Origin: Saccharicrinis aurantiacus
Lineage (GTDB): Bacteria; Bacteroidota; Bacteroidia; Bacteroidales; Marinilabiliaceae
DNA length: 41,227 bases
Assembly: GCF_001660705.2 (NCBI RefSeq)
Contig: NZ_LYBV02000053.1
Span: 1 to 41,227, forward strand
Direction: 5' to 3'
Below the pieces are notes generated by a model. That model worked only from the letters and a program-made list of their open reading frames with translations. It had not been told where the DNA came from and searched no databases. The first letter of the stretch is position 1, and each line of letters opens with the position of its first letter. Positions 6,891 to 37,845 of this stretch are shown piece by piece. The translations under genes were made by a program, and so were the position numbers.

Positions 6891-8165
6891 TTATGACACG
6901 CTTGTATTAATACATGAGTTCGTATCAGCTTTATTGCCTCTGTTTAGTTCTAATTTTTCATTTAGTGCAGACATATCAGCTCCAATTTTATCATTAAGTA
7001 CTTTGGCGTATATCTGGGTTGTATTAAGGCTTGTATGGCCGAGTAATTTACTAACTGTTTCTATGGGTACTCCATTGGCAAGGGTTATGGTTGTTGCAAA
7101 GGTATGCCTAGCTAGGTGAAAGGTTAAGTTTTTTTTGATGCCACATATTTCAGCAATTTGTTTGAGGTAAAGATTTATGCGCTGATTAGTAATTGTAGGG
7201 AAAAGCCTACAAAACCGTTGTGCTTTTGGATGATCTGCATATTTTGCAAGCATTTCTTTTGCCTCTGGGAGCAAAGGAATATGAATAGCTACATTGGTTT
7301 TCTTACGTTTTGTACTGATCCATTGATTACCATCTATTCCTATGATTAAATTCTCCGGACGAAGTGTTATTAAATCAGAATAGGCAATGCCTGTATAGCA
7401 AGAGAATACAAATAAGTCTCTCACAAGTTCGTGTGAAGAGCTTGTAAAACAATATGTTTTAAGTTTTATAAGCTCTGTAGTGGAAAGAAATTCTCGCTCT
7501 GTTTTTGTATAAGTAACTTTATATGCTAAGAATGGATTTTTTTCTATCCACTCCATCTTTAATGCTAAATTTAACATCTTTCTTAATCTGATGAGATGTT
7601 TCATTACCACATTATGTGATAGCTTATTGGTTAGGGAGATTACTTCGTAAGAGCGTAGGAAGGCTTCGAATTCATTTACGAAGCGGTAGTCGATCTTCTT
7701 TAGGCTAATATTGTCTACTTGTCTTATTTTATCCAAAAATTCGAGTAGATATTTTTCTGTTGTTTTGTAATGTTTTAAGGTGCCTGAGCTTAATTGTGAT
7801 GATTGAGTGTTGTAATGGTACTCAATAAGCGATTTTAGTGTGTTGCCCTGGTCTAAGATGCCAAAGAATTTATTCTTTAAAATAATAGGGGTTATAGGTT
7901 CTTTATCGAGTGTTAACTGTCGATAATTTTCAGTTATATTCGACCTGATATGATTGATGTACGAATTTGATTTCCTATAATCTTTGTAATGGTGCGTAAT
8001 TGTTTCTTTCTTCTTATCCCAAGAATTTGTGGGTATCTTTTTTAATACACTAAATTCAATTCTTTTTGAGTTTACAGTAAGTCGACACGAGATGATACTA
8101 TAGTCTGCATCTTTTTTTGTTAATCTAGCAATAAATCTAATTGCAAATGTTTGATTGTCTTTCAT
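6891..8165 (-). CDS. Tyrosine recombinase / integrase (element A)
   Basis: Site-specific integrase of the Bacteroidetes tyrosine-recombinase group, 424 residues. An arm-DNA-binding N-terminal domain (about 1-100) is followed by a SAM-like core-binding domain (about 105-215) and the catalytic domain. Catalytic residues visible: HLAR (H350, R353), H377 in LLGHTS and the nucleophile Y386 in TTQIYAKV; a lysine lies in TKRKKT near 286-289. The usual box I arginine is replaced (YTGIAYSDL), as described for IntDOT. It lies next to the tRNA-derived core at 8451-8474 and should act there. Element B's integrase (36088-37347) has the same layout but is clearly diverged, as are the arm repeats each would bind. 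Confidence 0.95.
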   Translation of the reverse strand: MKDNQTFAIRFIARLTKKDADYSIISCRLTVNSKRIEFSVLKKIPTNSWDKKKETITHHYKDYRKSNSYINHIRSNITENYRQLTLDKEPITPIILKNKFFGILDQGNTLKSLIEYHYNTQSSQLSSGTLKHYKTTEKYLLEFLDKIRQVDNISLKKIDYRFVNEFEAFLRSYEVISLTNKLSHNVVMKHLIRLRKMLNLALKMEWIEKNPFLAYKVTYTKTEREFLSTTELIKLKTYCFTSSSHELVRDLFVFSCYTGIAYSDLITLRPENLIIGIDGNQWISTKRKKTNVAIHIPLLPEAKEMLAKYADHPKAQRFCRLFPTITNQRINLYLKQIAEICGIKKNLTFHLARHTFATTITLANGVPIETVSKLLGHTSLNTTQIYAKVLNDKIGADMSALNEKLELNRGNKADTNSCINTSVS

Positions 8166-11617: not shown

Positions 11618-14131
11618 TCAATAAGTAACGACTAACTGGACTACCTTACCTGTCCGCTCATTATAAGGTTCACCTTTTAATTTAGCTTGCCCATTTAAAG
11701 CTTGACTTAAATATTCAACTTCTTCTTCTTTTAATGGCTCTGTATCTAGTCTGCTTAAAATATTTTTTGCCAATAAATAACGATAATAATAAATGCGTAT
11801 TTGTCGTGGTGTTGCAGAATTCATTCTCTTTATTGCCTTATCCAATACCTCTTTTTCATATATACTTAACTCAAAGGACTCATTGTTTGCTTTATTAGGA
11901 GATTCAGTACTATTCAGTGATTTATCCGTTATTTCTATTAAATTGGGAGTATTACCACTATCACTAACTTCCATCTTAGTATTCTTTTCTCTATTGGAAT
12001 CCAAATCTACAATTCCCTTTTTCACTTTGCCTTCACTCACAAAATCATTTTGAGATTCTAGCTCCTTTGTCTCAACCCTATCTTTTGTTAATGCTCCAAA
12101 ATAGTCCATCCGTTCTTTAGAACTTAATGTAGATAATTGAATGCCCGAAATGAAAAGTTTATCCATATATTCCTTCTCAAGTTGGACTAACTTATCTTCA
12201 AGTTTATTATCTTTTAAAATGTTGTTTAGATTATCAAAATACTTGTTTTTAATTGCAAATTTTAGTTTATCTTGATCAACAGCAACTAATATTAACATTC
12301 GTTTAATAATAGTTTGCTCCTCAAGCATCACTCGCAAAGCATCAATGACGTGTACCATCTTATCAACCCCACAACGATCTAGGTCATCAACAAATAGCAA
12401 TACCCTTGGAGGTTTACTAAAGAATCGCCTTAATATGAAATTATCATATTTATAATACCAGGCGTTCAACAAGAACACAATTTCATTTTGTATTTCAGCT
12501 TGTAAACCGAGAGTCTCTTTAAAACTTACTCCTTGAGTATAACGTTTAATAATAGTGGTGGCTTTTAGTCCATATTTATTGTAGATATACATTAATGTTA
12601 AACCAAATGTTCCCAATAACGCACTCAACAATTCGGGGATTATCTCAGTCACTTCACTTGGAACTACTTCATACTTATATAATAGATATAAACATGGAAT
12701 AATAACGAATAACGCAAATACTAAAGTTATAAATGTATTAGGGATATGGCGAATTGACTGTAACCAAATTGTATTTAGTATTCTACCAAAATAATTACTG
12801 CCTAAATACTTACTGGATAAACACTCATAAAGGTAAGCCCATACAGCCTCAGTATCCTGATACTTCCAAGCATGGAATTTTACAAAATGAAATGGTTTGT
12901 CTTTTTTCTTCTTATCAAGTTTTTTACCCGTATCATAATTAATATTAAACAAGCTGCACAAGTATTTTATAAAATATGTTTTACCTCGGCCCCATTGCCC
13001 AAATACACCAACCATTTGACCTTCCTCTCTTTGCATACTCTCTAACAGCCTCGCAAACTCCTTAGCAATAACAGGAACGTTAAATACAGGTTCTATTTTA
13101 TCACTTCTAAAATAATTAAACCCATGAAAGAGTTCTGCAAAATTTAGCTCTTCCTCTGCTTCTTCTGCTTCTTTATTCTCCTCTTTAAGTTCACCAGCTG
13201 ATTCTGAGGAATCTGAAGCCAGTGTTTTATTGCGTCTTCCATGAGGACTCCCCTCATAAGAACTAGAATCTGAATACTCATGCCACAACTCTTCACCATA
13301 ATCAATAATATTTGCACCTTTCGGCATTTTTTGAATAAGGAAGCTGTGCATTTTTGATATAGGTGTTTTATTACCAAAATTAGCCCCCCTATTATTTGAC
13401 AAGTAAACAAGAGCGTTTCTGGAGTATATGCTCAATACATTATCTGGAGCATAAATAAAAGCGATTTTCCACTTAACAAATTGATGTATACGAATCTTAT
13501 CAATTTCTTCTAATTGATTTGACTTAGCTTTATTAATAATCTCTTTTATTAGCATACTTACTGTAAGCATGGCTTCCTGCGGAGAATTACCGTTACTTAA
13601 ATACCCTAACCATGAGTATTCTTTATCGTGCTTATACTTCTTCGATACTGCTTTAGGCCCTTTTCTTTTATATATACCAAATTTAAAAGAACTACCCCCA
13701 CGAATGCCACCTAAATCAGAATAACCTACTTCTAAATCATAACAAAAGTATTCGGGATATTCTTTAGAGCCACAGTACATATCGAGTTTCATATTTTGAA
13801 CGACTTCTTCTGGCCACTTTTCTTTAAAGTCTTTTAACCTAGCTGCTTTATCACTTTCAATGTAATTAGTGGTGGTATTTATGTTTGAAACCTCACTTGA
13901 TGCAAGGTATTCAAGATATTTTGAAACAGAACCAAGTTCTAAAATTTGCAATCCCTTTTTTGTTATAGTATACCTGTGAGAATTCTCTTCTTTTAGATAT
14001 CCTTCTTTTGCAGCAAACTCAACAGCCGATTTTTTTTCTATAGGTTCATCTTTTCCGGGTGGGGCATAAAAACCACGTTCATTACATTCTGTCAGGATTT
14101 GAAATATTATATTATCTTGTTTATTGGTCAT
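11618..14131 (-). CDS. KAP family P-loop ATPase with N-terminal sensor region
   Basis: 837-residue membrane-associated STAND-like NTPase. The KAP domain shows Walker A GQWGRGKT (378-385), Walker B FVDDLDRCG (580-588), and two membrane segments inserted between them (about 467-486 and 500-517), the normal KAP layout. The N-terminus holds a winged-helix-like stretch (about 1-70) and a region with FVKWKIAFIYAPDNVLSIYS (218-237) that recalls sensor domains fused to McrB-type proteins. An acidic linker (310-330) precedes the KAP core. KAP proteins include the phage-exclusion protein PifA of F plasmid, so a defence role is likely in this island. It is transcribed alone, towards the phage-like cassette. 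Confidence 0.85.
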   Translation of the reverse strand: MTNKQDNIIFQILTECNERGFYAPPGKDEPIEKKSAVEFAAKEGYLKEENSHRYTITKKGLQILELGSVSKYLEYLASSEVSNINTTTNYIESDKAARLKDFKEKWPEEVVQNMKLDMYCGSKEYPEYFCYDLEVGYSDLGGIRGGSSFKFGIYKRKGPKAVSKKYKHDKEYSWLGYLSNGNSPQEAMLTVSMLIKEIINKAKSNQLEEIDKIRIHQFVKWKIAFIYAPDNVLSIYSRNALVYLSNNRGANFGNKTPISKMHSFLIQKMPKGANIIDYGEELWHEYSDSSSYEGSPHGRRNKTLASDSSESAGELKEENKEAEEAEEELNFAELFHGFNYFRSDKIEPVFNVPVIAKEFARLLESMQREEGQMVGVFGQWGRGKTYFIKYLCSLFNINYDTGKKLDKKKKDKPFHFVKFHAWKYQDTEAVWAYLYECLSSKYLGSNYFGRILNTIWLQSIRHIPNTFITLVFALFVIIPCLYLLYKYEVVPSEVTEIIPELLSALLGTFGLTLMYIYNKYGLKATTIIKRYTQGVSFKETLGLQAEIQNEIVFLLNAWYYKYDNFILRRFFSKPPRVLLFVDDLDRCGVDKMVHVIDALRVMLEEQTIIKRMLILVAVDQDKLKFAIKNKYFDNLNNILKDNKLEDKLVQLEKEYMDKLFISGIQLSTLSSKERMDYFGALTKDRVETKELESQNDFVSEGKVKKGIVDLDSNREKNTKMEVSDSGNTPNLIEITDKSLNSTESPNKANNESFELSIYEKEVLDKAIKRMNSATPRQIRIYYYRYLLAKNILSRLDTEPLKEEEVEYLSQALNGQAKLKGEPYNERTGKVVQLVVTY

Positions 14132-15908: not shown

Positions 15909-18900
15909 ATGACATTACCTAGAGAAACTTACACTAATGAGATAAGAGACCGCTTAGAAAAAATTTCGGGAGAGATTAAATCGCGCTATAACGGTGGCGA
16001 TAGTACCATTGCTTGGTTGGCAGAACTGCATATACAAGAATTGCTTAATATCATTTTTGAAGACGAGTATAAGTTTTTTAACCTGAACTACAAAAGGAAG
16101 AACTATCCGTCTGTTGATTTGGCAGATGTGGATAAAGGTATTGCCTGGCAAATTACGGTTACTAATAATAGAGAAGGTATTAAGGCGAAGATAAGACACA
16201 CCATAGAGAGTTTTTATAAAAATTTTGATAATGAACGCTACATAGAGCTTTCTAAAATCAAAAAGATTAAAATATTTATCGCCACCGGTATTGAGAGTAC
16301 TTTAAGTCCCAGAGACATACCAGGATGCATTGAAACTAAAAATGGTGTTGTGACCATTAGTGATGAGCTAATGAATCAAAATGATATTTGGGACTTTAGG
16401 CGTTTGATAGATGAGATATGCAAGGTTACAGATATATCGAGATTAGATAAAATACATAAGGCAGTTATAGGGGTTGTAAAACGACCTAAGAGGGTTGTTT
16501 TTGAGTATGACAGATCTTATATAAAAAGAACTATTAGTTCAAGTGAAAATTCAAAAGTACAGTTTCATAAGGATCTTTTTAATAGGGAACGAAAGCATAT
16601 ATTGTTATTAGCAAATGCTGCAGAAGGGAAAAGTACTTATGTTGATATAGTCTGTAGTGAATTAAGTAAGGATGGTAATGTGTTTTGTATTAAAGTGCCC
16701 TTGATTGGCTATGCTAGTAATTTAGAGAATAGCATTGAGGCTGTATGCCAATATTGGCGTAACTATTTTAAGCAACAACAGCTGATTATATTATTTGATG
16801 GTTTAGATGAGGTTAAGGGTGATTTGGTAGATATTGTCTTTAAGGAGATTGAAGAGTTTATCGCATTACACCCTAATACTTATGTAATAACTACCTGCCG
16901 TATGAATTATTCTCCTATCGGGGATCAGTCAAGTCAAGTTTTTAAAGCCGTTCCTTTCTTTCTAGATCCCATTACTTATAAAGAATCTATAGTATTTAGT
17001 AAGAAAACACTAGGGGATAATCTTGATAAATTTGAGTATGAGATTAAGGCATATGACTATAGCAAGCTTATCACTAATCCTTTCTTTCTGAATGAGCTTA
17101 TTGGATTTTATCAAAATGAAGGAGCATTGCCACAAACAAAATCAGCATTGATGGCAGGTATTGTACAAAGACGTTTTGAGTTTGAAGAGGTAAAAGTAGG
17201 TGAAGTAAAAAGTTTCGTAAGCAGAAATAGATATGAGATATTAAAGAACTTACGCTTATTGTCATTGACCATGCAACTCTCAGGAGAGAATAAAGTGACA
17301 GAGATAGAGCTACAACAAACTATCCAAGATAGTAGCATGTGTACAATGGTGAATCGCTTATTCTTAAAACCTATCAAAAATGATAGAAAAGAATGGCGTT
17401 TTGAGCATAATAACTTCATGGAGTATTTTGCTGCACAATGTCTGGTTAATTTGGAATGGAGTTCAATTAAAAAGCTTATTGAAGTGCCTGGAACAAATAA
17501 ATTAAAACCTAGATGGTTAAATACACTATCATTCTATATTGACATAGCCAATGATGAAGCGGATGAGGATGTTTACCGGAAAGTTATTGATTGGCTAGCC
17601 GAATATAATCAAGAATCCTTTGTGAAATTTGAGGCCGACAAGGTTCCGTTTATACAAAGATCTGAGATAGTAAAAGGAATATTTAAAGAAAAGAATAAGG
17701 ATCAGGCTAGAGTTTGGGGAGAGGGTTATGATGTTACAGATCTAGCCAAATTTTCGGATATCGAAAATAATGATAGATTGGTTCTTGACTTATTGGAAAA
17801 GCTTAAACAGAAATTCTATTGTGATTCCATTACCAGAGATATTATTGATTTTATTAATCATAGAGTAAATATTTTATCGGTCAAATCAGCTATTACAAAA
17901 GTTTATTTAGAAATCTATCCAAGTTATTATAAGTTATCTATTGGCTCAAGTATTATTGATGGTTTAGATCAATGGCGTATTTATGATAAAAGCGTTGTAG
18001 AGGCACTGATTAAAGATGGCTCTATCCTAGAGGATGTAGATAGCTTGTTTACAGCATTCAATTATTTATCTGATTCTGGATATCCAATTAATGCTATTTT
18101 GTTACAAAAGGCATTTTTAGCAAGTTACAATAGCAAGAAACAAAGTCATACCTACCCAAGCTTTAGTGGTTTGGTTCGTTTAATTCAATCAGGCGATGTG
18201 CTTCTTTCGTTTATTACATTTATTAGCAACCTGAATGATCATCATTACTGGGATAATGATGTGTTTTTAACAGATTTATTTAAAGCCATTAATAACAAAA
18301 GTATTGAATTACTAGGAGGAAGATTTGAAGATTATAAAACTTATTGCACAAGTGTTAACCGATTGGCTAAGCTTGGCTATTCACCTGAGCGTACTAAAAC
18401 AATACCGTATTTAATTCCATTTTTGGCAAACTGCCCAAAAAAGGATATTATTTTTAAACAATACTTTTTGCACGATGCTATAAAAAATAAGGGTTTTGTT
18501 GGGCTATTTTGTATGGCAGCACTTCTCTATTCTCCTGATATGAATGAATATATTTTCAATTGCATTGACTCAGGAAAGATTACCGATGACAGAGTACATA
18601 GTTTCATAAATGCATTGGCCCTATATAATAGAGGTTTATTAGATTGTTTTGAGTTGGCATTAGCAGAACGATATACTGAACGCTTTATGCAAGAACCTAA
18701 TCCATGGGAAGTTAATAGGAAGGATACTAATGCAATATTGCTAGAGGCTTTGCTCGATAAAACAAAGTTTATAGAGGTTATACAAGTTGGGTTGAAAGCA
18801 TTTAAAAATGTGATTAACTATGATGATTTAACACATCATAAATACTATCATGTAGACAATATCAATACGCCCGAAATTAATATTACTCTTAAACTATTAA

Positions 18901-20129
18901 GATGGTTGATTGGTAACGGCAAGCATAAAACTCATAATGAAATTCTCGAATGGTTTAACAATGACGAAGCTTGGGAATGGTTTGTACTTAATCAGCATTT
19001 AAGAAGTACCAATAAAAATATACTACCAGAAAGAAACAAACAATGGTGCAGAAACTGGTGCTTGAAGGTTGAGAGAGATATTGATTTTGAAGATGCTATA
19101 AAGTATAACGCCATTGAGGGTAAATATAATGTAAACAATTTATTTAATGCTTACATTAGTATTGCACTTACCGTAAATGTTAAACCCATACGAGAGAATG
19201 CTATAAAGCTTGTTAAATATGGCGGATTCTTTGATGATGGAAGTTACATTAATGGAGAAAGAAAAGTTAACTACGATGGGTGGATAATCAGTACTATAGG
19301 AAGAGAGGGGCTAAACAGAGAGTTTTGTAGCATATTAAAAAGAGGTAATATTGAAGGTTCATTGCTTTTGCAAGGCATCGCTAGATACTTAGAGAATTAC
19401 TCTTTAAAAGAGTGTACTGAATATTTACCAAAGTATATTATTAACCCTGATATACAGTACTATATTCGAAACCGATTTTTTGATATTTTTATTTCTTTAG
19501 ATGGTATGTTTACCGATGCGCTTATTGCCTATTTGGATTTGATTGAGAACAATGAGCAAGTAAATTGGTCGATTTTGAAATATCTATATGCAAATGCCCC
19601 TGAAGCATGTTCGGTATGGATAAAGAAAAACTACAAAGGAAAAGAATTAAGTGTAGAAGCAAGCTGTGTCTTATTGGTAGATCAACATACTGAAGATGCT
19701 ATGAAGATGTACTTAAATGAGCTCAAAGAGAGAAAACAACAACTGAGTGATATGTTCTATGACCATGGCAATTTTTTAGAGCTATTAAGTAAAAAGAATG
19801 TTGAGCATATAAAGCTAAAGCAGTTTTATTTTGTTGTGTTAGCTAGCTATGCAGATAAAGATTTTAACTATGTAGAACGTGGAAATGCACTTACCTACGT
19901 ATTCAATGGTCTGCAAAAATTAATTGGAGAGATTACTGATGGTCAGTCTGTTTTTAATGAAACAGAAGCTTTTGTTGATACTCTTTGTCAAGCTCCTTAT
20001 CACCCTGAATTTAAAGATCAAATTTATTACAGCAATATGAAATTTAAGACAGAGGTAATTGCGGCTTTGGACAAAGGGACGCGTTATAGGAAAGCTTTAA
20101 GAGAGGCTGAAAAGGTCATATCTGAGTAA
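15909..20129 (+). CDS. SMEK-NACHT STAND protein, NLR-like
   Basis: 1406 residues. The N-terminus (1-175) matches the SMEK domain seen on bacterial STAND proteins: LAELHIQELLNIIF, then SVDLADVDKGIAWQITVT, where D70 and Q81-T83 look like a degenerate PD-(D/E)xK site. The NACHT ATPase follows with a P-loop ANAAEGKST (235-243; first Gly replaced) and Walker B LIILFDGLDEVKG (292-304). Residues from about 500 on are helical, repeat-like and lack enzymatic motifs, as in sensor domains. Bacterial NACHT proteins are known antiphage sensors; which phage protein this one would detect is unknown. Its 3' end overlaps the convergent mcrC stop by 14 nt. The gene stands alone behind the structured gene-free region. 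Confidence 0.85.
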   Translation: MTLPRETYTNEIRDRLEKISGEIKSRYNGGDSTIAWLAELHIQELLNIIFEDEYKFFNLNYKRKNYPSVDLADVDKGIAWQITVTNNREGIKAKIRHTIESFYKNFDNERYIELSKIKKIKIFIATGIESTLSPRDIPGCIETKNGVVTISDELMNQNDIWDFRRLIDEICKVTDISRLDKIHKAVIGVVKRPKRVVFEYDRSYIKRTISSSENSKVQFHKDLFNRERKHILLLANAAEGKSTYVDIVCSELSKDGNVFCIKVPLIGYASNLENSIEAVCQYWRNYFKQQQLIILFDGLDEVKGDLVDIVFKEIEEFIALHPNTYVITTCRMNYSPIGDQSSQVFKAVPFFLDPITYKESIVFSKKTLGDNLDKFEYEIKAYDYSKLITNPFFLNELIGFYQNEGALPQTKSALMAGIVQRRFEFEEVKVGEVKSFVSRNRYEILKNLRLLSLTMQLSGENKVTEIELQQTIQDSSMCTMVNRLFLKPIKNDRKEWRFEHNNFMEYFAAQCLVNLEWSSIKKLIEVPGTNKLKPRWLNTLSFYIDIANDEADEDVYRKVIDWLAEYNQESFVKFEADKVPFIQRSEIVKGIFKEKNKDQARVWGEGYDVTDLAKFSDIENNDRLVLDLLEKLKQKFYCDSITRDIIDFINHRVNILSVKSAITKVYLEIYPSYYKLSIGSSIIDGLDQWRIYDKSVVEALIKDGSILEDVDSLFTAFNYLSDSGYPINAILLQKAFLASYNSKKQSHTYPSFSGLVRLIQSGDVLLSFITFISNLNDHHYWDNDVFLTDLFKAINNKSIELLGGRFEDYKTYCTSVNRLAKLGYSPERTKTIPYLIPFLANCPKKDIIFKQYFLHDAIKNKGFVGLFCMAALLYSPDMNEYIFNCIDSGKITDDRVHSFINALALYNRGLLDCFELALAERYTERFMQEPNPWEVNRKDTNAILLEALLDKTKFIEVIQVGLKAFKNVINYDDLTHHKYYHVDNINTPEINITLKLLRWLIGNGKHKTHNEILEWFNNDEAWEWFVLNQHLRSTNKNILPERNKQWCRNWCLKVERDIDFEDAIKYNAIEGKYNVNNLFNAYISIALTVNVKPIRENAIKLVKYGGFFDDGSYINGERKVNYDGWIISTIGREGLNREFCSILKRGNIEGSLLLQGIARYLENYSLKECTEYLPKYIINPDIQYYIRNRFFDIFISLDGMFTDALIAYLDLIENNEQVNWSILKYLYANAPEACSVWIKKNYKGKELSVEASCVLLVDQHTEDAMKMYLNELKERKQQLSDMFYDHGNFLELLSKKNVEHIKLKQFYFVVLASYADKDFNYVERGNALTYVFNGLQKLIGEITDGQSVFNETEAFVDTLCQAPYHPEFKDQIYYSNMKFKTEVIAALDKGTRYRKALREAEKVISE

Positions 20130-21357
20130 TTGTTTTATTTGATCTTATTTGTGGCAATTGAATACCAATTTTCCAGAAATCTTCGAATTGAGGGATGCGC
20201 TCTTCTTTTAATGATCTGTTGAGGAAGTTAGGTTTTGCTTCAAGGTTTGGGTAGATGATGCAGCAGGGCAGTAACTCATTGGGAGATGCGTTTAGTTTTT
20301 TTCTGATTTTGCTATCTCTGGCATATCCGCTAATTTGGCGTATGTTTTCTATTTCGTAGCGCTGATCATTGTATAGTAGTTTATACTTTGTGTCGATAAC
20401 TAGTTTTTCATCTAGTTTGAGGAAGTCAGCACTGCCGTATTTTCCTTTAGCCTGGTATTGAATGTTATTGTCATATTCTTCTCTAAGCTTTCCGTATACG
20501 TATATCTCGAATAATAGTGACATGTCAATCCAATAGGGCGGTGTTTTCAGCTTATTAGTGGTGGTTGTCTGTGACATGGTATAGGCAAAGCGTTTTAGTA
20601 TCATTCTGGCCAGCTTTAAGGCTTCTGCATATTCTCTATATATTGGGTTTATACGAACGCTTTTTATTAATACAGCATCTACTTCACTTGAAACATTTTC
20701 GAAGGCAGCTAAACAAAAGTTTATTGTACTGCGAATATTTTTGTTGTTTTTGCCATTGTAATACCGATTCAGGTATGAAGCTACAAAGAGTAAAGTCTTT
20801 TTTAGCAGCTTATTTTCGAGGCAATTGACAGAATATTCCTGGTAGTTGCAATAGTTTTTGTGGTAACGTGCTTTGGCGATATTGTGGTTGAAGTGTCTAG
20901 AGAACTTTATTTTGCCTTTTATTTTTGAGGCCAAGTTCTCTTCTTCCCTTATGTAATCTTTCTTTAAACCTTTTGATACTATTTGCTTTAGTACACTCAG
21001 ATAATGTATCAGGAGCATAGGCGTGATATCAAAAGCTGCATTGTTTATTTCAATGGGAGTGCTATCTAAATCGATATGGTAAATCTCGCTAAGTATATTG
21101 TGTAAGGCTGGCGAATGCAGGCATTCCTGAAACATGGACATCACATCAAGACCTTTAATTTTGGGGTCTACCTTTATGGCAAAGTCTCCTTCCTTGAGCC
21201 AATCTACCCCAATAAAATAGCTTGTACATAAACAGGGATCTAAACATAAAAACTTAACTTGACCTTCTACTATAGAGAAATCAAGATTTAGCTCTTTTAT
21301 CTTTTCTTTAATAGATGGTTCGAAAGAACGGTGTTCAATAGTTTCAAAAACTTCCAT
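20116..21357 (-). CDS. mcrC: 5-methylcytosine restriction nuclease subunit McrC
   Basis: Nuclease partner of McrB; together they cut DNA carrying modified cytosines. 413 residues from the ATG at 21357, which overlaps the mcrB stop as TAATG, so translation is coupled (a GTG six nt upstream would add two residues). N-terminal McrB-binding-type region, then MSLLFEIYVYGKL and the PD-(D/E)xK core ADFLKLDEKLVIDTKYK with D311, D322 and K324. Length and motifs are normal for McrC, so the enzyme looks active. It is the last gene of the operon and converges on the NACHT gene with a 14-nt overlap. Confidence 0.92.
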   Translation of the reverse strand: MEVFETIEHRSFEPSIKEKIKELNLDFSIVEGQVKFLCLDPCLCTSYFIGVDWLKEGDFAIKVDPKIKGLDVMSMFQECLHSPALHNILSEIYHIDLDSTPIEINNAAFDITPMLLIHYLSVLKQIVSKGLKKDYIREEENLASKIKGKIKFSRHFNHNIAKARYHKNYCNYQEYSVNCLENKLLKKTLLFVASYLNRYYNGKNNKNIRSTINFCLAAFENVSSEVDAVLIKSVRINPIYREYAEALKLARMILKRFAYTMSQTTTTNKLKTPPYWIDMSLLFEIYVYGKLREEYDNNIQYQAKGKYGSADFLKLDEKLVIDTKYKLLYNDQRYEIENIRQISGYARDSKIRKKLNASPNELLPCCIIYPNLEAKPNFLNRSLKEERIPQFEDFWKIGIQLPQIRSNKTITQI

Positions 21358-23006
21358 TAGCACTTTAAGTTGTCAAGCAGGTTGTCTACCTCTTCCATCC
21401 TAACAGTTAGGATGCCGTCTTTAATATACTCTACTAATAAGGGCTTTATTTCATATTCTAACTTTAGGTTTAATTCATCGTATGACGATGCCATAAAGTA
21501 GCTATGTCCAACCATGACATCTTTGCATTGGAATTCAGGTGAAGTGTTTGCTTTTACTATATTCTTTACTTCATTGTATAGTTTAACAGCACTTTCAGAT
21601 AAGTCATCAGAATTCTCAATTAGACCATTATAATATTCGGAAATATGCTCTACTTTGGATTCTAAAGAAATAAACCCAAATCTACGACGAACTGCATAAT
21701 CAATGTGACCTAAACTACGGTCAGTTGTATTCATGGTTCCTATGATGTATAAGTTATTAGGAATGCTGAATTCGTCATTTGAATATGGTAAGCTGCATTT
21801 TACCTCATTTATTTGGCCCATGCGTTTATCAGCTTCAAGAAGGGTGATTAATTCGCCAAATATTTTGGATATGTTGCCACGGTTGATTTCGTCGATGATG
21901 AGGACGTAGTTTTTATCTGAATTATCCTGGAGATTGTGGTCTGTTAGCTGAAAATCTTTTTTGAGGTGATTTAAAATTCCCCAAACGTATGATTTATTGT
22001 ATATGCCATCTGATTCTCCTCGGTATAGTTTTTCGATATTTTCAATACTTGCAGGAAAGTCCTGCCCCTCTTTAGCCTGACTTTTAAGTGACCTTACTCT
22101 AAAAGTGATACCTCCTCTATATGTGACAGTAAACTTGCCCTTTTCAATCGTCTCCAATACAATATCATCCGTTACATTTACACATTGCTCCTTGAATTTT
22201 TCAATAGCTGCCTGCAGCTCTTTTAAGGAATCTTTTTGAATGGCTTTTTTACAGATTTTCTTAAAAATACCTGGGACAATATCGTAGGTTATATCTTTGC
22301 CTTCCTGAATTGGTTTAATCCCCTCTATGAATTCTTCGTAGTCCAATGATTGATGAAAGGTTGTAAATACGATTTGTCCTTCATCTACTGCTTTCTGGTA
22401 ACTTTTCATTAACTCCTTTCTGTTGGAAGAATCAATATTGTTATTGTTGATTATCCTTAATGCTAATTCTGCAGTAGCATAGGTTTTACCAGTTCCTGGA
22501 GCTCCTTGAAGAATGATTTGTTTTTTGAGATGGAGGATTTGTTTAATTTGTTCACTTTTCATGCGATTAATATTTTCTATACTTAGAGCATTATAAAGGT
22601 CTGTAGTAGCATCAATTTCTTCTATCTTATTGATCCCATATGAGAAGTTTACACCTTTTACTGTTCCCATTTGACCTGAACCAGGGAGCATATTTTCTTG
22701 TAAACCATGGTAAGATATTCCAATTTCAGCGGATTGTTGGTCATAGAAGTGCCATTCTTTAACTTTAGCTCTTAAATTCCATTCCCTATGATTAGACTGA
22801 AATCGTTTTAGGCATTCACCATAGGCAACTAGCTGTCTATTATATTTTAATAACAGAATATCTCCTTTGTAAATACTATCATATACACCTTTTTGAGTGG
22901 TGTCTTCATGTAAAACAAAAGCATTATCTTTTACTATACGTTTTAAATTATCTTTTACATAATCCTTTCCGAGCTCTCCTACACTGCAGACGAAAAAATT
23001 TCTCAT
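21357..23006 (-). CDS. mcrB: AAA+ GTPase McrB
   Basis: 549-residue GTP-driven motor of McrBC. Walker A GAPGTGKT (168-175), Walker B with the family signature DEINRGN (372-378) followed by SKIFGELITLLEADKR, and the GTP-recognition motif MNTTDRS (425-431) before DYAVRRRFGF. The N-terminal about 130 residues (GDILLLKYNRQLVAYGECL) look like a PUA/EVE-type modified-base reader rather than the E. coli McrB DNA-binding domain; this decides which modification is detected. 157 nt separate it from the upstream 221-residue gene, the only large gap in the six-gene run, so it may have its own promoter. Confidence 0.93.
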   Translation of the reverse strand: MRNFFVCSVGELGKDYVKDNLKRIVKDNAFVLHEDTTQKGVYDSIYKGDILLLKYNRQLVAYGECLKRFQSNHREWNLRAKVKEWHFYDQQSAEIGISYHGLQENMLPGSGQMGTVKGVNFSYGINKIEEIDATTDLYNALSIENINRMKSEQIKQILHLKKQIILQGAPGTGKTYATAELALRIINNNNIDSSNRKELMKSYQKAVDEGQIVFTTFHQSLDYEEFIEGIKPIQEGKDITYDIVPGIFKKICKKAIQKDSLKELQAAIEKFKEQCVNVTDDIVLETIEKGKFTVTYRGGITFRVRSLKSQAKEGQDFPASIENIEKLYRGESDGIYNKSYVWGILNHLKKDFQLTDHNLQDNSDKNYVLIIDEINRGNISKIFGELITLLEADKRMGQINEVKCSLPYSNDEFSIPNNLYIIGTMNTTDRSLGHIDYAVRRRFGFISLESKVEHISEYYNGLIENSDDLSESAVKLYNEVKNIVKANTSPEFQCKDVMVGHSYFMASSYDELNLKLEYEIKPLLVEYIKDGILTVRMEEVDNLLDNLKC

Positions 23007-23163
23007 TAGTTTTTCTATTTTGCTACTTAATAGCGCAGCTATATAATAAATTTATAATTTTACTGATCCTAAAAATGAACTACTATTACTTTATGTTTTA
23101 TTTTAATGCCAAGTATATTGTATTTAAATCATTACATATTGTGGTATACCATAATTTAATTCT

Positions 23164-23829
23164 CTAAAAAATTCTACCTCTATTTTCTGTTCTAAAATTG
23201 AGCTCATCAATACCATTTGATTTACACCATTTTATTATTGAATTGATTAAGCCATCAATTGAATTAACAAACTCGCCATGACTAACTAATGCCTTAGCAG
23301 TAGGTTTTCTCAACTCTATCTTGCGATAAGCGCTGTAGGTAACATTCTCTTGTCGTGCTTCAAAAAGACATAAATTTGATTCTCTTAAATAATCAGTTTC
23401 TTTAAAATCAAATGTAGTATGGTTAGTAAAACAGTTCATTTGATCTACAATTGATTTAGGCATTAAGGGATTTTCAATAAACTTTGCTAATTGAAAAGGG
23501 CTAAGCGTTAAATCTACCATTAGAACTTTTGTATTCTTATCGTATTTAATTTCGCCTTTTTTACAAAGTTTGTGATATCCAAATATACTCCTCTTGTGAT
23601 AAGAAGAATTTACATTTAATGTTTCACTATTTCTTTGATAGTTCAAGTGATACATATCAAAGGAACACTTATTTAAATGTTCTATAAGGTTTAGAACCGT
23701 ATCTAATTGTCTTTTTTTAAGTTCTCCTGGTAATAGCTTTTTGTACACTAAGAATGCAATAATTAATGTTCCCATGCCAATTGCAATCTGGAATATATTG
23801 ACTATGTTTATATTAAGGAATTCGTACAT
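23164..23829 (-). CDS. Membrane-anchored hypothetical protein of defence operon
   Basis: 221 residues. One N-terminal membrane segment (about 8-29, IVNIFQIAIGMGTLIIAFLV), then a soluble cytoplasmic-type region with KKLLPGELKKRQLDTVLNLIEHLNK (amphipathic helix), Cys and His pairs (KLCKKGEIKYDKN, FTNHTTFDF) and a beta-rich end. I do not recognise a family. It begins 21 nt after the AbiC-like gene stop, which points to co-transcription and a shared membrane location with the AbiC-like and 193-residue proteins. Confidence 0.7.
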   Translation of the reverse strand: MYEFLNINIVNIFQIAIGMGTLIIAFLVYKKLLPGELKKRQLDTVLNLIEHLNKCSFDMYHLNYQRNSETLNVNSSYHKRSIFGYHKLCKKGEIKYDKNTKVLMVDLTLSPFQLAKFIENPLMPKSIVDQMNCFTNHTTFDFKETDYLRESNLCLFEARQENVTYSAYRKIELRKPTAKALVSHGEFVNSIDGLINSIIKWCKSNGIDELNFRTENRGRIF

Positions 23830-23850
23830 GATTTATAATCATCAATTGCT

Positions 23851-25452
23851 TTAGTCATTATTGGTTTTCTTATTATTTATATACTTCTCTGTTACCCAGA
23901 ATAGAAGAGGGATTGTAGCAATTAATAATGCCATGCCAATTAGTTGTATGCCTGTTAATTCATTTATACCTAAAGAAAGAGAATATAAAACAAATGATGC
24001 AATCCCCATCATTACTGGTTGTACGGCTTCATCGGGCCCAGGGGTAAAAAGCATATATCCAAGCTCTACAGCTGTTGCAGCTGCTAAGCCTATTGATACC
24101 ATCTGCAGAATGGGCATTTCTGTATATTTAACAACAAAGTTCCAATCGCAATTAGGCCACATAAATAACTCCTGAAATAGTTCATATCCTATAATGCAAA
24201 TCACACCCGCTCCTATGAGGTATTGAAATATATTCTTTACCACCCTTGCCCAAAGCACGAATTTAGTTTCATTATCTTTTTGTTCTTCTTGCTTTAGGAA
24301 TTTAATAAACTCTTTACCTTCCATTTCTACTTTTTTTTTACTTGCTTTTTCTTCCTCGTCCCATTCGAAATCAACCACTGGATAAAAACACTGTGGTTTC
24401 ATTAATGGAATAAATGATTCAGGAAGGTTATTTATTAGGTTATAATCACTAATCAATTTACGATTGTCAATGTTACTATATTCCCACTTTCTACCTAAAG
24501 CTGTTAATGAGTTTATGAATAGTAAAGCTTGCTCGTAGTTAGACATTTGTGCTCGAATAGTCTTTATATAATCATATTTGTCATTTTTTGATAGCAACCA
24601 AGATGGTTGACGGTCTATATATTTTACTGTTTGGTAAAAATGTCTAAAATAATGTCCTAAATGATATTGGTGTCCTCCAAAGAATTTAATCTTAGGTAAT
24701 GATTTTGAACATTTCCAAACTTCATTAAGTGGGGCTTTTTTGCTATAGACTATTTTAGATTTTAAGTTTTTAAGATAATTCTCTTTCTTACCTTCACATT
24801 CATAAACAGCTACTATTTTAGGTGCTTCATTAAGAATGGCCCTTGTTCCTTTATCTATAAGAACTTTTTGTGTATACTTTCTTAGTTCATCATCTATATC
24901 CAAAGGAATTCCCCAGTAAACTAGCATATAAGCCAGTTCATTAATTACATATCTTTTTTTCCATTCTGATTCATCAAGATGAAGGTTCTTTTTAATAACC
25001 GAGTTAGGTATATCGATAGTCTTAAAATATTTCTCATTTTGATTTATTACTTCAAGAACGAGTTTTTGAGCAACCTTATACTGCTCAAAGATCGTTTTTA
25101 TTACTCTTCTTCCAGAAACAAATTCTTCATCCGATTCTCTAGTGTTACTTTTATAGTAAAATGGATTCCTAAAACGCATCTCTGAAATATTCTCACGGTA
25201 ATATTTTACCATTTCAAAGAATTTTGCTTCTACTTGTTGACGACGAAAAGCTCGGATTTGAAAAAGTAAAGTTACGGCTAATAAAAACGAGCCTATAAAC
25301 GAACCAAATTGTCCCCAAAGAACAGGCTCGATATTAATTGTAAGACCTGCCCCTGCTCTTATGAACTGGATAATAATTAATACTATCGCTATGACAAATA
25401 AGGCTAAGACAATATACCAATAGTTTATTCTAGTAGTTTTTTTATTTTTCAT
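23851..25452 (-). CDS. AbiC-like putative phage abortive infection protein
   Basis: 533 residues. Two N-terminal membrane segments (about 11-31 and 43-65) precede a soluble domain with the pattern I associate with the putative phage abortive infection (putAbiC) family: AKFFEMVKYYRENI, GRRVIKTIFEQY, GHYFRHFYQTVKYI (266-279), and IRAQMSNYEQALLFINS (299-315). After about residue 400 it has an extra block of four or five membrane segments (for example IFQYLIGAGVICIIGYELF, FVLYSLSLGINELTGIQLIG) not usual for the family. It lies 6 nt after the HsdM-N gene. AbiC-type proteins block phage growth after infection; the mechanism is unknown. Confidence 0.75.
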   Translation of the reverse strand: MKNKKTTRINYWYIVLALFVIAIVLIIIQFIRAGAGLTINIEPVLWGQFGSFIGSFLLAVTLLFQIRAFRRQQVEAKFFEMVKYYRENISEMRFRNPFYYKSNTRESDEEFVSGRRVIKTIFEQYKVAQKLVLEVINQNEKYFKTIDIPNSVIKKNLHLDESEWKKRYVINELAYMLVYWGIPLDIDDELRKYTQKVLIDKGTRAILNEAPKIVAVYECEGKKENYLKNLKSKIVYSKKAPLNEVWKCSKSLPKIKFFGGHQYHLGHYFRHFYQTVKYIDRQPSWLLSKNDKYDYIKTIRAQMSNYEQALLFINSLTALGRKWEYSNIDNRKLISDYNLINNLPESFIPLMKPQCFYPVVDFEWDEEEKASKKKVEMEGKEFIKFLKQEEQKDNETKFVLWARVVKNIFQYLIGAGVICIIGYELFQELFMWPNCDWNFVVKYTEMPILQMVSIGLAAATAVELGYMLFTPGPDEAVQPVMMGIASFVLYSLSLGINELTGIQLIGMALLIATIPLLFWVTEKYINNKKTNND

Positions 25453-25458
25453 ACTTAA

Positions 25459-25767
25459 TTACTCCTCACTCCAATTATTGGCCAATACCTCAGCTTGTTT
25501 TAAAACTAAATCAATGGCTTCCTGGCTGTATTCTTTATTAGAGTCAAAGTCGTTAGGTAAGTAATTGTCGTGGTTCTCATCTTTTAGGTTTTCTTCAAGT
25601 TGAACTCTACGTTTTTGAAAAGCATCACTGACATATTGTACAAAGATGAGGTCTAATACGGCATGTTTGTATTCTGCATCTGAAGGTCTGGAGCGTAGAT
25701 TATCAGCTGAAGTCCATAGTTTTTTATCTAATTCGTTTAAGAATTGTTGTTCGTGTTGTGATGTCAT
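25459..25767 (-). CDS. Free-standing HsdM N-terminal domain
   Basis: 102 residues that match only the N-terminal helical domain of type I methylase HsdM: QQFLNELDKKLWTSADNLRS, AEYKHAVLDLIFVQYVSDAFQKRR, YLPNDFDSNKEYSQEAIDLVL. The SAM-binding (GxG) and NPPF catalytic motifs are absent and do not follow downstream, where the next gene starts after 6 nt. In HsdM this region contacts HsdS and DNA. The clean spacing (8 nt before, 6 nt after) argues that it is an expressed small protein in this operon and not just debris. It may be a decoy, adaptor or sensor of type I enzymes, or an HsdM remnant. Confidence 0.75.
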   Translation of the reverse strand: MTSQHEQQFLNELDKKLWTSADNLRSRPSDAEYKHAVLDLIFVQYVSDAFQKRRVQLEENLKDENHDNYLPNDFDSNKEYSQEAIDLVLKQAEVLANNWSEE

Positions 25768-25775
25768 ATGGTGTA

Positions 25776-26357
25776 TTATTTTTTTCCTAAATATGCTATC
25801 ATTAAAAAGTTACTTGCTATAAATAGAATGGATATGATGTGATAAAACCAAAATTTTGTTTTTTTCACTTCAAGTCCCATATTCTTTTCATAGGGAATTT
25901 GAATTCGTATATGCCATTTATAAAACCCTAATAATGAAAGAAAGGATCCAAAGAATAAAGCAATGACAAATAGACCAGTTGTTTTTTTTGTATAGTGCCA
26001 TTTATCATTCACACCTTCTTGAGCATTTAACATGAGATCTTTATTCATTACTATATCAGCTTTCAATTTCTGAAAATTGAAGTGTATTTCTTGAGATTGA
26101 TCTGTAAAGTTGGTTTCCAGCTTTTTTTTTGCGACTTCAATTGAGGTACTATCTTCTTTACTTAAAGTAAAGGCATACTGTATCATTTGTATTGAGTCTT
26201 GTTTAATCTTATTGCTAAAAGTAATGGAATCTCTTAGGTAAGCGTTTTTTACTTCGCGGTATTTCACAAACTGACTAACAGCTAAGTTGCCACTAAATAA
26301 ATAGATCAATATACCTGAAATAGCAATGAATTTATATAGATTATCGGTTGGGGGCAT
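25776..26357 (-). CDS. Membrane coiled-coil protein, first gene of McrBC/AbiC operon
   Basis: 193 residues: N-terminal membrane segment (about 7-27), an exposed helical region of about 90 residues (YREVKNAYLRDSITFSNKIK ... QSQEIHFNFQKLKADI), then two membrane segments (TGLFVIALFFGSFLSLLGFY; FWFYHIISILFIASNFLMIAYL). I recognise no family. It lies 8 nt before the HsdM-N gene. The layout (sensor-like loop between membrane helices) fits a membrane sensor or effector. A TATCTTTA box lies 23-30 nt before the start. Confidence 0.7.
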   Translation of the reverse strand: MPPTDNLYKFIAISGILIYLFSGNLAVSQFVKYREVKNAYLRDSITFSNKIKQDSIQMIQYAFTLSKEDSTSIEVAKKKLETNFTDQSQEIHFNFQKLKADIVMNKDLMLNAQEGVNDKWHYTKKTTGLFVIALFFGSFLSLLGFYKWHIRIQIPYEKNMGLEVKKTKFWFYHIISILFIASNFLMIAYLGKK

Positions 26358-26653: not shown

Positions 26654-26685
26654 AAACTCCCGCTTGATTTCGCAGGCGGGAGTTT
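26654..26685 (-). terminator. Terminator of exported-nuclease operon
   Basis: On minus AAACTCCCGC, 12-nt loop, GCGGGAGTTT and a T-run. The stem is 10 bp. It starts 7 nt after the stop codon of the lipoprotein gene. Confidence 0.85.
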
Positions 26686-31556: not shown

Positions 31557-32411
31557 CTACGATTGATTTTGATGGTGACGGCAATAGCCGTTGGCATTAT
31601 TGGTTTTAGATTTGCAGCGGTGACCAGTGCTCTTGGCAGTTCCTTTGCACTGATTGCTACTTACTGCTGGTTTTACATTATTAGGAGCTGATTTTGTTGA
31701 GGTACGAGACCAGTCGTTGATATTTCCTTTTTGGCTTTCTAGTTTAGCTTCTAGCTGATCATCTACTTGTGAAAAGAAATTGATACCTGTTAAGGATTCG
31801 ATGCTGTCTACAGGTAATATAAATTCAGATAATGCTTTCTCTGATTTTTCGTTTGGTAGCACAAAGCCAATCATAAGCTGTGATGAGGGTTGGTAAATTA
31901 CCTTATAATAAGAACCAGGTACAGTTACTTTGTTACTGCCAATTGCTCCCATATTATCTTTAAATATAGGACCAGTTACTACATGGGTTTCTGTGCTCCA
32001 TCCCCACTCACGTACTAAAGCTTCTAGGTTTTTCCAAATGCCTCTATTGAAATTAGGCTTTTGAGGGCTCATGTTTGACATGTAGAAGGTTTGGCTCATG
32101 GCGGTATGATTTACTTTCATAGCTGCAGCTGGACATAAATGGCCACGGTCGTATCCAGAACCTTTGTAGTCTTCCAGGGAAGCAGAGCTTGTGGATACTT
32201 TTGGGTCGGGACGGAAATCATCTGTACGCTTAGCATTGCCAGCATTTATGGTGTAATAGACCCACTCAGCTTGTTCGTGGTCTTCAATATAGGATAGTGA
32301 ATAGTAAGCATGTTCAACCAACTCGCCATTTATGGTTGGTTGGTATTGGGCGAATACCAATAATGAGGATAGGCTTAGGGTGATGGATAGAATGTACTTC
32401 TTTAAGGGCAT
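31557..32411 (-). CDS. Exported DNA/RNA non-specific endonuclease
   Basis: 284 residues. Signal peptide MPLKKYILSITLSLSSLLVF, cut after AQ. The beta-beta-alpha-metal nuclease domain has DRGH (88-91) and the metal-binding Asn in FNRGIWKNLE (N122), as in Serratia nuclease and EndoG-like enzymes. The C-terminal tail (about 253-284) holds a Cys/His motif CKGTAKSTGHRCKSK ... YCRHH likely to bind zinc or nucleic acid; this tail is common on Bacteroidota nucleases. It stands alone (202-nt gap from the neighbour) but is a second exported nuclease next to the EEP operon. It could degrade extracellular DNA for nutrients, block DNA uptake or attack phage DNA. Confidence 0.9.
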   Translation of the reverse strand: MPLKKYILSITLSLSSLLVFAQYQPTINGELVEHAYYSLSYIEDHEQAEWVYYTINAGNAKRTDDFRPDPKVSTSSASLEDYKGSGYDRGHLCPAAAMKVNHTAMSQTFYMSNMSPQKPNFNRGIWKNLEALVREWGWSTETHVVTGPIFKDNMGAIGSNKVTVPGSYYKVIYQPSSQLMIGFVLPNEKSEKALSEFILPVDSIESLTGINFFSQVDDQLEAKLESQKGNINDWSRTSTKSAPNNVKPAVSSNQCKGTAKSTGHRCKSKTNNANGYCRHHQNQS

Positions 32412-36087: not shown

Positions 36088-37347
36088 TTAAATTACTATT
36101 GTGTCTGAATTGGAACCCTTCTGTCTTTGACTAAGTACCTGTTCTAAGTTTGACATATCACTACCAATTTTATCTTGAAGTACTTTGGCATAAACCTGTG
36201 TTGTTGTTAGGGTTGTGTGGCCAAGTAATTTACTTACCGTCTCGATAGGCATACCATTTGCTAGTGTTATAGTAGTAGCAAAAGTATGTCGCGCTAGGTG
36301 GAAAGTCATGTGTTTGTCAATTCTACATAATTTTGCAACTTGTTTAAGATAAATGTTCACCCTTTGGTTTGTAATAGGAGGAAATAAACGACAAGCTCTA
36401 AGGGCTTTGGGATGATGGGAGTAGGCATTGAGAATTCTAATTGCTTCTGGTAACAAGGGAATTTGTAAGGTAATATTTGTTTTTTTACGTTTGGTATGAA
36501 TCCATTGTTTACCATCAATACCTATAACAACATTCTCGGGGCGAAGCGAAATAAGATCTGTATAAGATATTCCGGTATAACATGAAAAGATGAATAAATC
36601 ACGAACTAAAGTATGATATTGAGTGGTGAACTTACATTGGCTCAATGTTGCTAATTCTTTAGTTGTGAGGAATCCACGTTCTACTTTAGTATAGGTGACT
36701 TTATAGTTCTCAAAAGGGTTTTTATCTATCCATTCTAATTTTACGGCAAGGTTCAATATTTTTCTTAATCGAATGAGGTGCTTCATAATTACATTATGAG
36801 ATAGATTATTGGTTACCGAGTTAACCTCATATAATCGCAAGAAAGCCTCAAATTCATTAACAAACTTGTAGTCTATTCGCTTAATAAAAAAGTCTTCAGT
36901 TCCTTTCTTGTTTTTTAGGAATTCAAGTAGATATCTTTCTGTTGTTTTGTAGTGTTTTAAAGTTCCTTCGCTTAATTGAGAAGATTGTGTTTGGTAATGG
37001 TAGCTTATTAGCGATTTTAATGTTTCGCCTTGTTCTGCAATTCCTAAAAAGCGATTCTTAAGTATCATAGGAGAAATGAGTTCTTCATTCAATACAGTCG
37101 CCCGATGTAAATCGTATATTTTAGACTTAACTCGCTGAATATGTAAATTACATTTTCGAAACTCGGAATAGTTGGCTGTTAACTTTTCTTTAGAAGAGTT
37201 CCATGAATTAAGGGGTACATCTTTAAAAATGGAGAACTCGGCTCTTTTGCTATTTACAGATATCCTACAGTAAATAGATACTTGCTCTTTATTACTTTTG
37301 TTTATTCGAGTAATAAAGGAAACGGAAAATGATGTTTTGTTGGTCAT
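36088..37347 (-). CDS. Tyrosine recombinase / integrase (element B)
   Basis: 419 residues with the same domain order as 6891-8165. Catalytic HLARHTFAT, LLGHTTLTTTQVYAKV (His and Tyr nucleophile) and TKRKKT lysine are present. The box I arginine is missing (YTGISYTDL). It lies 389 nt from the tRNA gene whose 3' end it targets. Divergence from the A integrase goes along with different arm repeats (ACTCACT against ACTCCCG), which suggests that each integrase recognises its own arms while sharing the tRNA core. Confidence 0.95.
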   Translation of the reverse strand: MTNKTSFSVSFITRINKSNKEQVSIYCRISVNSKRAEFSIFKDVPLNSWNSSKEKLTANYSEFRKCNLHIQRVKSKIYDLHRATVLNEELISPMILKNRFLGIAEQGETLKSLISYHYQTQSSQLSEGTLKHYKTTERYLLEFLKNKKGTEDFFIKRIDYKFVNEFEAFLRLYEVNSVTNNLSHNVIMKHLIRLRKILNLAVKLEWIDKNPFENYKVTYTKVERGFLTTKELATLSQCKFTTQYHTLVRDLFIFSCYTGISYTDLISLRPENVVIGIDGKQWIHTKRKKTNITLQIPLLPEAIRILNAYSHHPKALRACRLFPPITNQRVNIYLKQVAKLCRIDKHMTFHLARHTFATTITLANGMPIETVSKLLGHTTLTTTQVYAKVLQDKIGSDMSNLEQVLSQRQKGSNSDTIVI

Positions 37348-37818: not shown

Positions 37819-37845
37819 ATCCTTTTTATTACATTCATTAATATG

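What the first reader, a model, noticed from the sequence alone, without database searches (positions are those of the whole stretch)
20116..26357. Six-gene operon joining McrBC to AbiC-like and HsdM-N membrane module
Order on minus: membrane coiled-coil protein, HsdM N-terminal domain, AbiC-like protein, membrane-anchored protein, McrB, McrC. Gaps are 8, 6, 21 and 157 nt, and mcrB/mcrC overlap as TAATG. I know of no described system with this set. It may be one system where a membrane complex acts when McrBC or a type I enzyme is blocked, or two systems side by side (four-gene membrane module plus McrBC).
Basis: partly seen in the sequence, partly recalled or inferred. Interest (0 to 1): 0.75.

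Follow-up and report, generated by a model that had tools for sequence, protein, structure and literature searches.

The report
Scar of a deleted restriction operon
The row of six genes is the remainder of a larger bacterial anti-phage operon whose type I restriction enzyme genes were cut out, leaving a small fused stub next to an AbiC-like gene and an apparently intact McrBC enzyme; it is not a new six-part defence system.

Summary
All six ORFs, their gaps and the mcrB/mcrC overlap are as described. The second gene, however, is not a small HsdM-N protein. It is an in-frame fusion: residues 1 to about 83 are the start of HsdM, and the last 20 or so are the end of HsdR. The parental layout survives in Marinifilum sp. 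D714 (L118): hsdM, hsdS, a SIR2-like gene, hsdR, 7 nt, then the closest AbiC relative found (50% identity). In the window the stub ends 6 nt before the AbiC-like gene. About 7 kb was therefore probably lost; no intact copy was found in the same genome. McrBC beside or inside type I operons occurs in relatives (L212, L215, L167) and is described in print (PMC11090510). Other collapsed hsd operons turned up, some with intact cargo genes. The two small membrane genes have no recurrent partner. Best reading: a decayed hybrid type I / type IV restriction operon, leaving a probably working McrBC plus AbiC-like and membrane cargo. The 'one new membrane system' reading is not supported; the type I, AbiC and McrBC association behind it is real but not frequent.

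The parts
   Evidence: HsdM residues 1-84 match at 25767-25519 (69%, E 9e-30); HsdR residues 1028-1047 of 1048 match at 25527-25468 (65%, E 0.003), same frame. Tail score 70, against at most 50 in 2000 shuffles, and 33 for the next best of 105 window ORF tails.
25519..25527 (-). breakpoint zone between the hsdM part and the hsdR part
   Evidence: The two tblastn matches overlap here; GAAG is shared by window, L118 hsdM and L118 hsdR at the join.
25776..26357 (-). 193-aa small membrane/coiled-coil protein, first gene of the row, 8 nt before the scar; former leading cargo of the operon (inferred)
   Evidence: Intact ORF; no Pfam family above its cut-off; two weak relatives in 394 other phylum genomes, with no hsd, mcrB or mcrC match in the stretches read around them.
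23851..25452 (-). AbiC-like membrane protein, 533 aa, 6 nt after the scar
   Evidence: putAbiC E 3e-18; best relative L118, 50% in the best segment over residues 12-389, lies 7 nt after hsdR.
23164..23829 (-). 221-aa orphan protein with a hydrophobic N-terminal stretch (read by eye)
   Evidence: No family; no convincing relative.
21357..23006 (-). mcrB: AAA+ GTPase of the McrBC type IV restriction enzyme
   Evidence: AAA_5; solved McrB structures, best E 1e-47 (6ut3), and McrB 6hz4, E 8e-34.
20116..21357 (-). mcrC: nuclease subunit of McrBC
   Evidence: PF10117 E 1e-31; 36-43% relatives in five other genomes of 75, plus one weak match in a sixth.
26659..26676 (-). terminator-like stem before the row starts
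   Evidence: Consensus scan only.

Best explanation
This is a decayed hybrid restriction operon. Shown by sequence: the 102-aa gene joins the first ~83 codons of hsdM in frame to the last ~20 codons of hsdR, ends where HsdR ends, and lies 6 nt before an AbiC-like gene, as hsdR lies 7 nt before the closest AbiC relative in Marinifilum. Inferred: the parent operon ran 193-aa gene, hsdM, hsdS, cargo, hsdR, abiC, 221-aa gene, mcrB, mcrC. One deletion of about 7 kb, perhaps through a 4-nt microhomology (GAAG), removed most of hsdM, all of hsdS and nearly all of hsdR together. Losing methylase and nuclease at once leaves no restriction without protection. What remains does not depend on self-methylation: McrBC should still translocate on and cut incoming DNA with modified bases (from knowledge of the family). 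The AbiC-like membrane protein may still act as an abortive-infection effector, now without a type I partner, its translation perhaps still coupled to the stub's stop codon. The stub product has no catalytic part and is most likely inert.
For: HsdM part: 70% identity over residues 1-83 to HsdM of L118. The next best relatives among 395 phylum genomes are N-termini of full-length HsdM (G241 56%, G213 55%, G352 52%, G162 52%, frames of 563-586 aa), and these four stop matching at residues 82-86. HsdR part: tblastn of residues 71-102 against plasmids found 38 records; 25 carry a gene name there and all 25 are type I restriction subunit R, 13 have no listed gene; each match alone is weak, E 2-10. 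In the five HsdR proteins of plasmid operons that I fetched, the match falls on the last residues. Against L118 HsdR the tail scores 70; the best of 2000 shuffles is 50; the best other tail of 105 window ORFs is 33. Parent layout: L118 PDDEXK-hsdM-hsdS-SIR2_2-hsdR-abiC. Other collapsed hsd operons: of 19 short HsdM frames inspected, 5 keep the HsdM start and only a C-terminal piece of HsdR (L117, L219, L220, L227, L231). In L220, L227 and L231 an intact Fic or Schlafen-AlbA_2 cargo gene stands between the two remnants. Constraint: the stub differs at 2 of 15 near-invariant HsdM positions; 42 of 47 rows differ at none. McrBC with type I operons: L212, L215, L167.
Against: The HsdR part is only about 20 residues. 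No relative found carries the whole inferred parent operon: L118 lacks the 193-aa gene, the 221-aa gene and mcrBC in the stretch read, and its AbiC has a different C-terminus. None of the other 19 short-frame loci is a fused HsdM-HsdR ORF like the window's, and none carries AbiC or the 193- or 221-aa gene. The stub has stayed open for 102 codons, which selection for translational coupling could also explain. The 2-of-15 constraint signal is weak: L196, counted as an intact HsdM, differs at 5 of 16. AbiC is mostly not near hsd genes (8 of 80). Activity of McrBC and of the AbiC-like protein was not testable. Nothing shows that mcrBC, 157 nt downstream, shares the transcript.
Confidence: 0.88

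Rival explanations
1. One new six-gene system: HsdM-N, AbiC-like and membrane proteins form a complex that guards or backs up McrBC.
For: Tight spacing and shared strand; AbiC, type I genes and mcrBC occur in line in L167.
Against: Gene 2 is a deletion scar. The 193- and 221-aa genes were found beside 0 of 80 AbiC relatives and 0 of 23 earlier neighbourhoods. No second genome with the set was found in these searches.
Confidence: 0.03
2. Two intact systems side by side: a four-gene membrane module plus McrBC.
For: 157-nt gap before mcrB. Three of five fetched McrBC loci of relatives stand without hsd genes in the stretch read (L213, L214, L216).
Against: The four-gene module contains the scar and was not found elsewhere.
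Confidence: 0.04
3. The in-frame fusion has been kept by selection, as a translational relay that keeps abiC coupled or as a small protein that still binds a type I enzyme or AbiC.
For: The frame is open over 102 codons, with the stop and the short spacing to abiC preserved (6 nt against 7 nt in L118). In L220, L227 and L231 a collapsed hsdM is likewise in frame, keeps its own end, and overlaps the start of an intact cargo gene.
Against: Of 11 collapsed hsdM loci whose frame I could judge, window included, 4 are in frame (window, L220, L227, L231) and 7 are not (L117, L217, L219, L221, L222, L224, L233): about the one in three that chance gives. L220, L227 and L231 come from one genus. 2 of 15 near-invariant HsdM residues are changed.
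Confidence: 0.07
4. Assembly artefact: an intact hsdM-hsdS-hsdR collapsed by the assembler.
For: The genome is a draft of 69 contigs.
Against: No other contig holds the missing HsdM or HsdR; two near-invariant HsdM residues have already changed. That hsdM and hsdR are not repeats of each other is general knowledge, not tested.
Confidence: 0.02

Closest known systems
Type I restriction-modification operon with AbiC after hsdR, Marinifilum sp. D714 (L118, NZ_JALPNU010000007.1)
   Same: HsdM start 70% identical; HsdR end matches the stub's tail; AbiC 50% identical at nearly the same spacing after hsdR.
   Different: Marinifilum has full hsdM, hsdS, SIR2-like cargo and hsdR, no mcrBC match in the stretch, and other flanking genes.
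McrBC branch associated with type I restriction systems in potential single operons (Bell et al. 2024, PMC11090510; section 6 read, passages)
   Same: McrB with an NxxD-type signature (MNTTDR, read by eye from the translation) in a row that once held type I restriction genes on the same strand.
   Different: Here the type I enzyme is reduced to a stub, and an AbiC-like and a small orphan gene stand between it and mcrB. Placement in that branch was not tested by a tree.
Type IV system embedded in a type I cluster (TgvAB, PMC11411939; abstract seen, section 10 read)
   Same: A modification-dependent enzyme and a type I enzyme in one gene cluster.
   Different: TgvAB is GmrSD-like, not McrBC, and its type I enzyme is active.
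putAbiC family, PF16872
   Same: The 533-aa protein passes the family cut-off.
   Different: It carries a C-terminal membrane segment that the seven other relatives aligned lack; residues 430-528 matched one plasmid record of 72,556.

Membership tests
Type I restriction-modification system (HsdM/HsdS/HsdR) | HsdM with complete N-terminal and N6-methylase domains | tested here: not met
   Only HsdM_N positions 1-61 of 135, no N6_Mtase in the 102-aa protein; no further HsdM match in the locus with E below 0.1.
Type I restriction-modification system (HsdM/HsdS/HsdR) | HsdR with nuclease and motor domains in the same operon | tested here: not met
   Only the last ~20 residues remain; the HsdR at 233-3289 is a distant one (24-29%).
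Type I restriction-modification system (HsdM/HsdS/HsdR) | HsdS specificity subunit | tested here: not met
   No match to L118 HsdS in the window with E below 1; HsdS proteins vary much, so this rests on one query.
McrBC type IV restriction enzyme | McrB AAA+ GTPase with McrB-specific similarity | tested here: met
   Solved McrB structures, E 1e-47 to 4e-33.
McrBC type IV restriction enzyme | McrC subunit gene directly after mcrB | tested here: met
   PF10117 E 1e-31; start overlaps the mcrB stop. Transcription itself was not tested.
McrBC type IV restriction enzyme | N-terminal modified-base recognition domain on McrB | tested here: inconclusive
   Residues 1-140 have no family hit above its cut-off and one weak relative besides the window's own in 198 genomes.
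McrBC type IV restriction enzyme | Cuts modified DNA | not testable with these tools
   Needs a biochemical or phage assay.
putAbiC (PF16872) | Profile match above the curated cut-off | tested here: met
   66.5 bits against a cut-off of 22.
putAbiC (PF16872) | Abortive infection phenotype | not testable with these tools
   Needs phage challenge.
Recurrent six-gene system | The same genes together in a second lineage | tested here: not met
   0 of 80 genome loci and 0 of 23 earlier loci carry a recognisable 193- or 221-aa gene beside AbiC; some of these loci have short flanks.

The most novel reading that the evidence does not exclude
The in-frame hsdM'-'hsdR stub has been kept because it works: it keeps abiC translationally coupled, or its HsdM-like helices still dock on AbiC or on a foreign type I enzyme. 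More widely, collapsed hsd operons (window, L220, L227, L231) may be kept as expression carriers for their cargo (AbiC, Fic, Schlafen-AlbA_2), so that a restriction operon turns into a stand-alone cargo defence.
Probability: 0.07. Interest if true: 0.55.

Novelty: new member of a known kind. Interest (0 to 1): 0.3.

Why it matters
It shows how a hybrid type I / type IV restriction operon can lose methylase and nuclease, probably in one step, while keeping its accessory genes, and it gives a search signature (HsdM start with HsdR end) for finding such relics; 5 of 19 short HsdM frames inspected carry both ends. It also ties one AbiC-family protein to the position just after hsdR, so the question of whether AbiC backs up a blocked type I enzyme can be tested in the intact Marinifilum operon. 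As a claim of a new six-part system it should be dropped.

Tried and rejected
A free-standing HsdM-N gene. From I first read three short frames: L071 is the first part of an hsdM broken into two frames; L072 and L074 run off the end of their sequence. Five run off a contig end (L218, L223, L226, L229, L230). Five keep the HsdM start and a C-terminal piece of HsdR only (L117, L219, L220, L227, L231). L228 keeps HsdM 7-72 and a nearly full HsdR. The others are broken or shortened hsdM genes, or continue as HsdM. None is a fused ORF like the window's. Matches beyond the printed list were not seen.

Relatives of the 221-aa protein: 3 short matches in 395 genomes lie in unrelated long proteins; nothing in plasmids, genome contigs or viral contigs. 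Its structure prediction without an alignment failed (mean pLDDT 34.7).

AbiC counts: 2 of 71 family genomes and 20 of 395 phylum genomes, own included. In viral contigs: none. In phages: one weak match, E 6e-4. McrC in PDB sequences: none. McrC in plasmids at E 1e-20: none. PADLOC on the tail alone: none. Tail against PDB sequences: chance matches. Literature: no paper with PF16872 or putAbiC in the library searched; searches for AbiC with type I restriction and AbiC with Lactococcus phage capsid gave listings that were not followed up.

Counts against my reading: among 80 AbiC relatives 8 lie within 350 bp of a co-oriented hsd-like gene (L118, L136, L138, L142, L149, L167, L195, L196; L149 weak, 66 bits), and 1 is beside mcrB. 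So AbiC is not generally a type I cargo, though many of these loci have short flanks. Among the 23 earlier neighbourhoods L038 has an hsdR-like gene 110 bp upstream, and L039 and L040 have hsd-like genes further off. Of 7 genomes with an McrC match, own included, 5 loci from 4 genomes were fetched; 2 of those 5 join hsd genes. The fragments in G026 and G041 were not fetched.
Full report
Check of the observation. McrB and McrC are clear. The 533-aa protein passes the putAbiC cut-off. The 193- and 221-aa proteins match no family above its cut-off.

What the 102-aa gene is. Pfam matches only positions 1-61 of the 135-position HsdM_N profile. Its relatives are mostly N-termini of full-length HsdM, and no listed row matches past residue 92 (searches list only part of their matches). 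The remaining tail, searched alone against 72,556 plasmid records, hit 38 records; all 25 that carry a gene name at the match are type I restriction subunit R (each E is 2-10, so the consistency counts, not the single score). Several of the same plasmids also gave the best HsdM matches, for example NZ_CP065043.1, with hsdM at 95413 and hsdR ending at 103722. In the five HsdR proteins of fetched plasmid operons the tail aligns to the last residues. Against HsdR of L118 the tail scores 70, against a maximum of 50 in 2000 shuffles and 33 for the next best of 105 window ORF tails. A tblastn of L118 HsdM and HsdR on the window puts HsdM residues 1-84 at 25767-25519 and HsdR residues 1028-1047 of 1048 at 25527-25468, same frame. 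The gene is thus an in-frame hsdM'-'hsdR fusion. At the join the window, L118 hsdM and L118 hsdR share GAAG.

The parent layout. A scan of the genome collection (84,980 species by the tool's description) with an AbiC alignment kept the best 80 loci of 149. The best, Marinifilum sp. D714 (L118), has PDDEXK-hsdM-hsdS-SIR2_2-hsdR-abiC on one strand, with 7 nt between hsdR and abiC; in the window 6 nt separate the stub and abiC. Its HsdM start is 70% identical to the stub and its AbiC 50% to the window's. If the window's parent was alike, about 7 kb was lost. I found no other copy in the window's genome: HsdM of L118 finds only the stub and a 26% relative on another contig, and HsdR finds only the distant HsdR at 233-3289.

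Age and recurrence. The stub differs from the other 46 aligned HsdM starts at 2 of 15 near-invariant positions; 42 of 47 rows differ at none, though L196 differs at 5 of 16. This hints at relaxed constraint and an older event. I then inspected 19 other short HsdM frames. Five are cut by contig ends. Five keep the HsdM start and a C-terminal piece of HsdR only: L117 (HsdM 12-233, then HsdR 976-1043, 4 nt apart), L219, L220, L227 and L231. In L220, L227 and L231 the hsdM has collapsed in frame with its own end kept, and overlaps an intact Fic (L220, L231) or Schlafen-AlbA_2 (L227) gene. So loss of the type I enzyme with survival of cargo is not unique to the window. Of the 11 collapsed hsdM loci whose frame I could judge, window included, 4 are in frame, about what chance gives, so there is no evidence of selection on the frame. 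L219, L220, L227 and L231 come from one genus (g80), and their independence was not tested.

The neighbours. Among the 80 AbiC loci, 8 have a co-oriented hsd-like gene within 350 bp (one weak), 1 has mcrB-mcrC next (L167: hsdR-hsdS-abiC-mcrB-mcrC, hsdM further on), and 0 have a recognisable 193- or 221-aa gene. Among 23 earlier neighbourhoods none had any of the window's other genes, and one had an hsdR-like gene directly upstream of AbiC (L038). From the McrBC side, 7 of 76 related genomes, own included, have McrC. Of 5 loci fetched from 4 genomes, 2 have mcrBC in line with hsd genes: L212 mcrB-mcrC-hsdM-hsdS-x-hsdR, and L215 hsdM-x-hsdS-x-x-x-mcrB-mcrC-hsdR. Bell et al. 2024 (PMC11090510, section 6 read) describe frequent association of one McrBC branch with type I systems, often as a potential single operon. 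TgvAB inside a type I cluster is a similar nesting (PMC11411939, abstract and section 10).

How it most likely works. Shown: the fusion, its position, and the domain content of mcrB and mcrC. Inferred: the single deletion, the parent order, and the present functions. McrBC should restrict DNA with modified bases without needing a methylase. The AbiC-like protein is probably a membrane-bound abortive-infection effector, now without a type I partner. The stub is most likely inert, at most a relay for translation into abiC.

Novelty. Type I operons with cargo and McrBC are known; this is a decayed member. I saw no paper on this arrangement in the listings, which cover open-licence PubMed Central only.

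Noticed in passing
window 15909-20129 (+): 1406-aa protein with an N-terminal SMEK domain and a weak STAND-NTPase match, converging on mcrC with a 14-bp overlap. In two Chryseobacterium loci (L187, L197) a relative follows AbiC at 120 nt.
   Followed up: partly
window 11618-14131 (-): 837-aa KAP-family NTPase whose residues 85-285 resemble PD-T4-1 and whose NTPase part resembles QatA.
   Followed up: no
window 233-3289 (-): A second, distantly related type I HsdR at the left edge of the contig.
   Followed up: no
window 36088-37347 (-), 6891-8165 (-), 37744-37919 (-): Two tyrosine recombinases, one close to two near-identical tandem tRNA-Arg (tct) genes, as in an integrated defence island.
   Followed up: partly
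L220 2912-4828 (-), L231 2389-4846 (-), L227 3133-5083 (-): Collapsed hsd operons of one genus: an in-frame shortened hsdM overlaps an intact Fic (L220, L231) or Schlafen-AlbA_2 (L227) gene, followed by only the C-terminal piece of hsdR.
   Followed up: partly
L117 10093-10861 (-): Another hsdM'-'hsdR relic: HsdM residues 12-233, then HsdR residues 976-1043 4 nt later, in another frame.
   Followed up: partly
L228 728-4573 (-): HsdM reduced to residues 7-72 upstream of a nearly full-length HsdR: a nuclease subunit that seems to have outlived its methylase.
   Followed up: no
L044 7992-8312 (+): The C-terminal membrane segment of the window's AbiC-like protein matches an unannotated short ORF on a Pantoea plasmid, 34.7%.
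   Followed up: no
window 31557-32411 (-): DNA/RNA non-specific endonuclease with a DUF5763 C-terminus.
   Followed up: no
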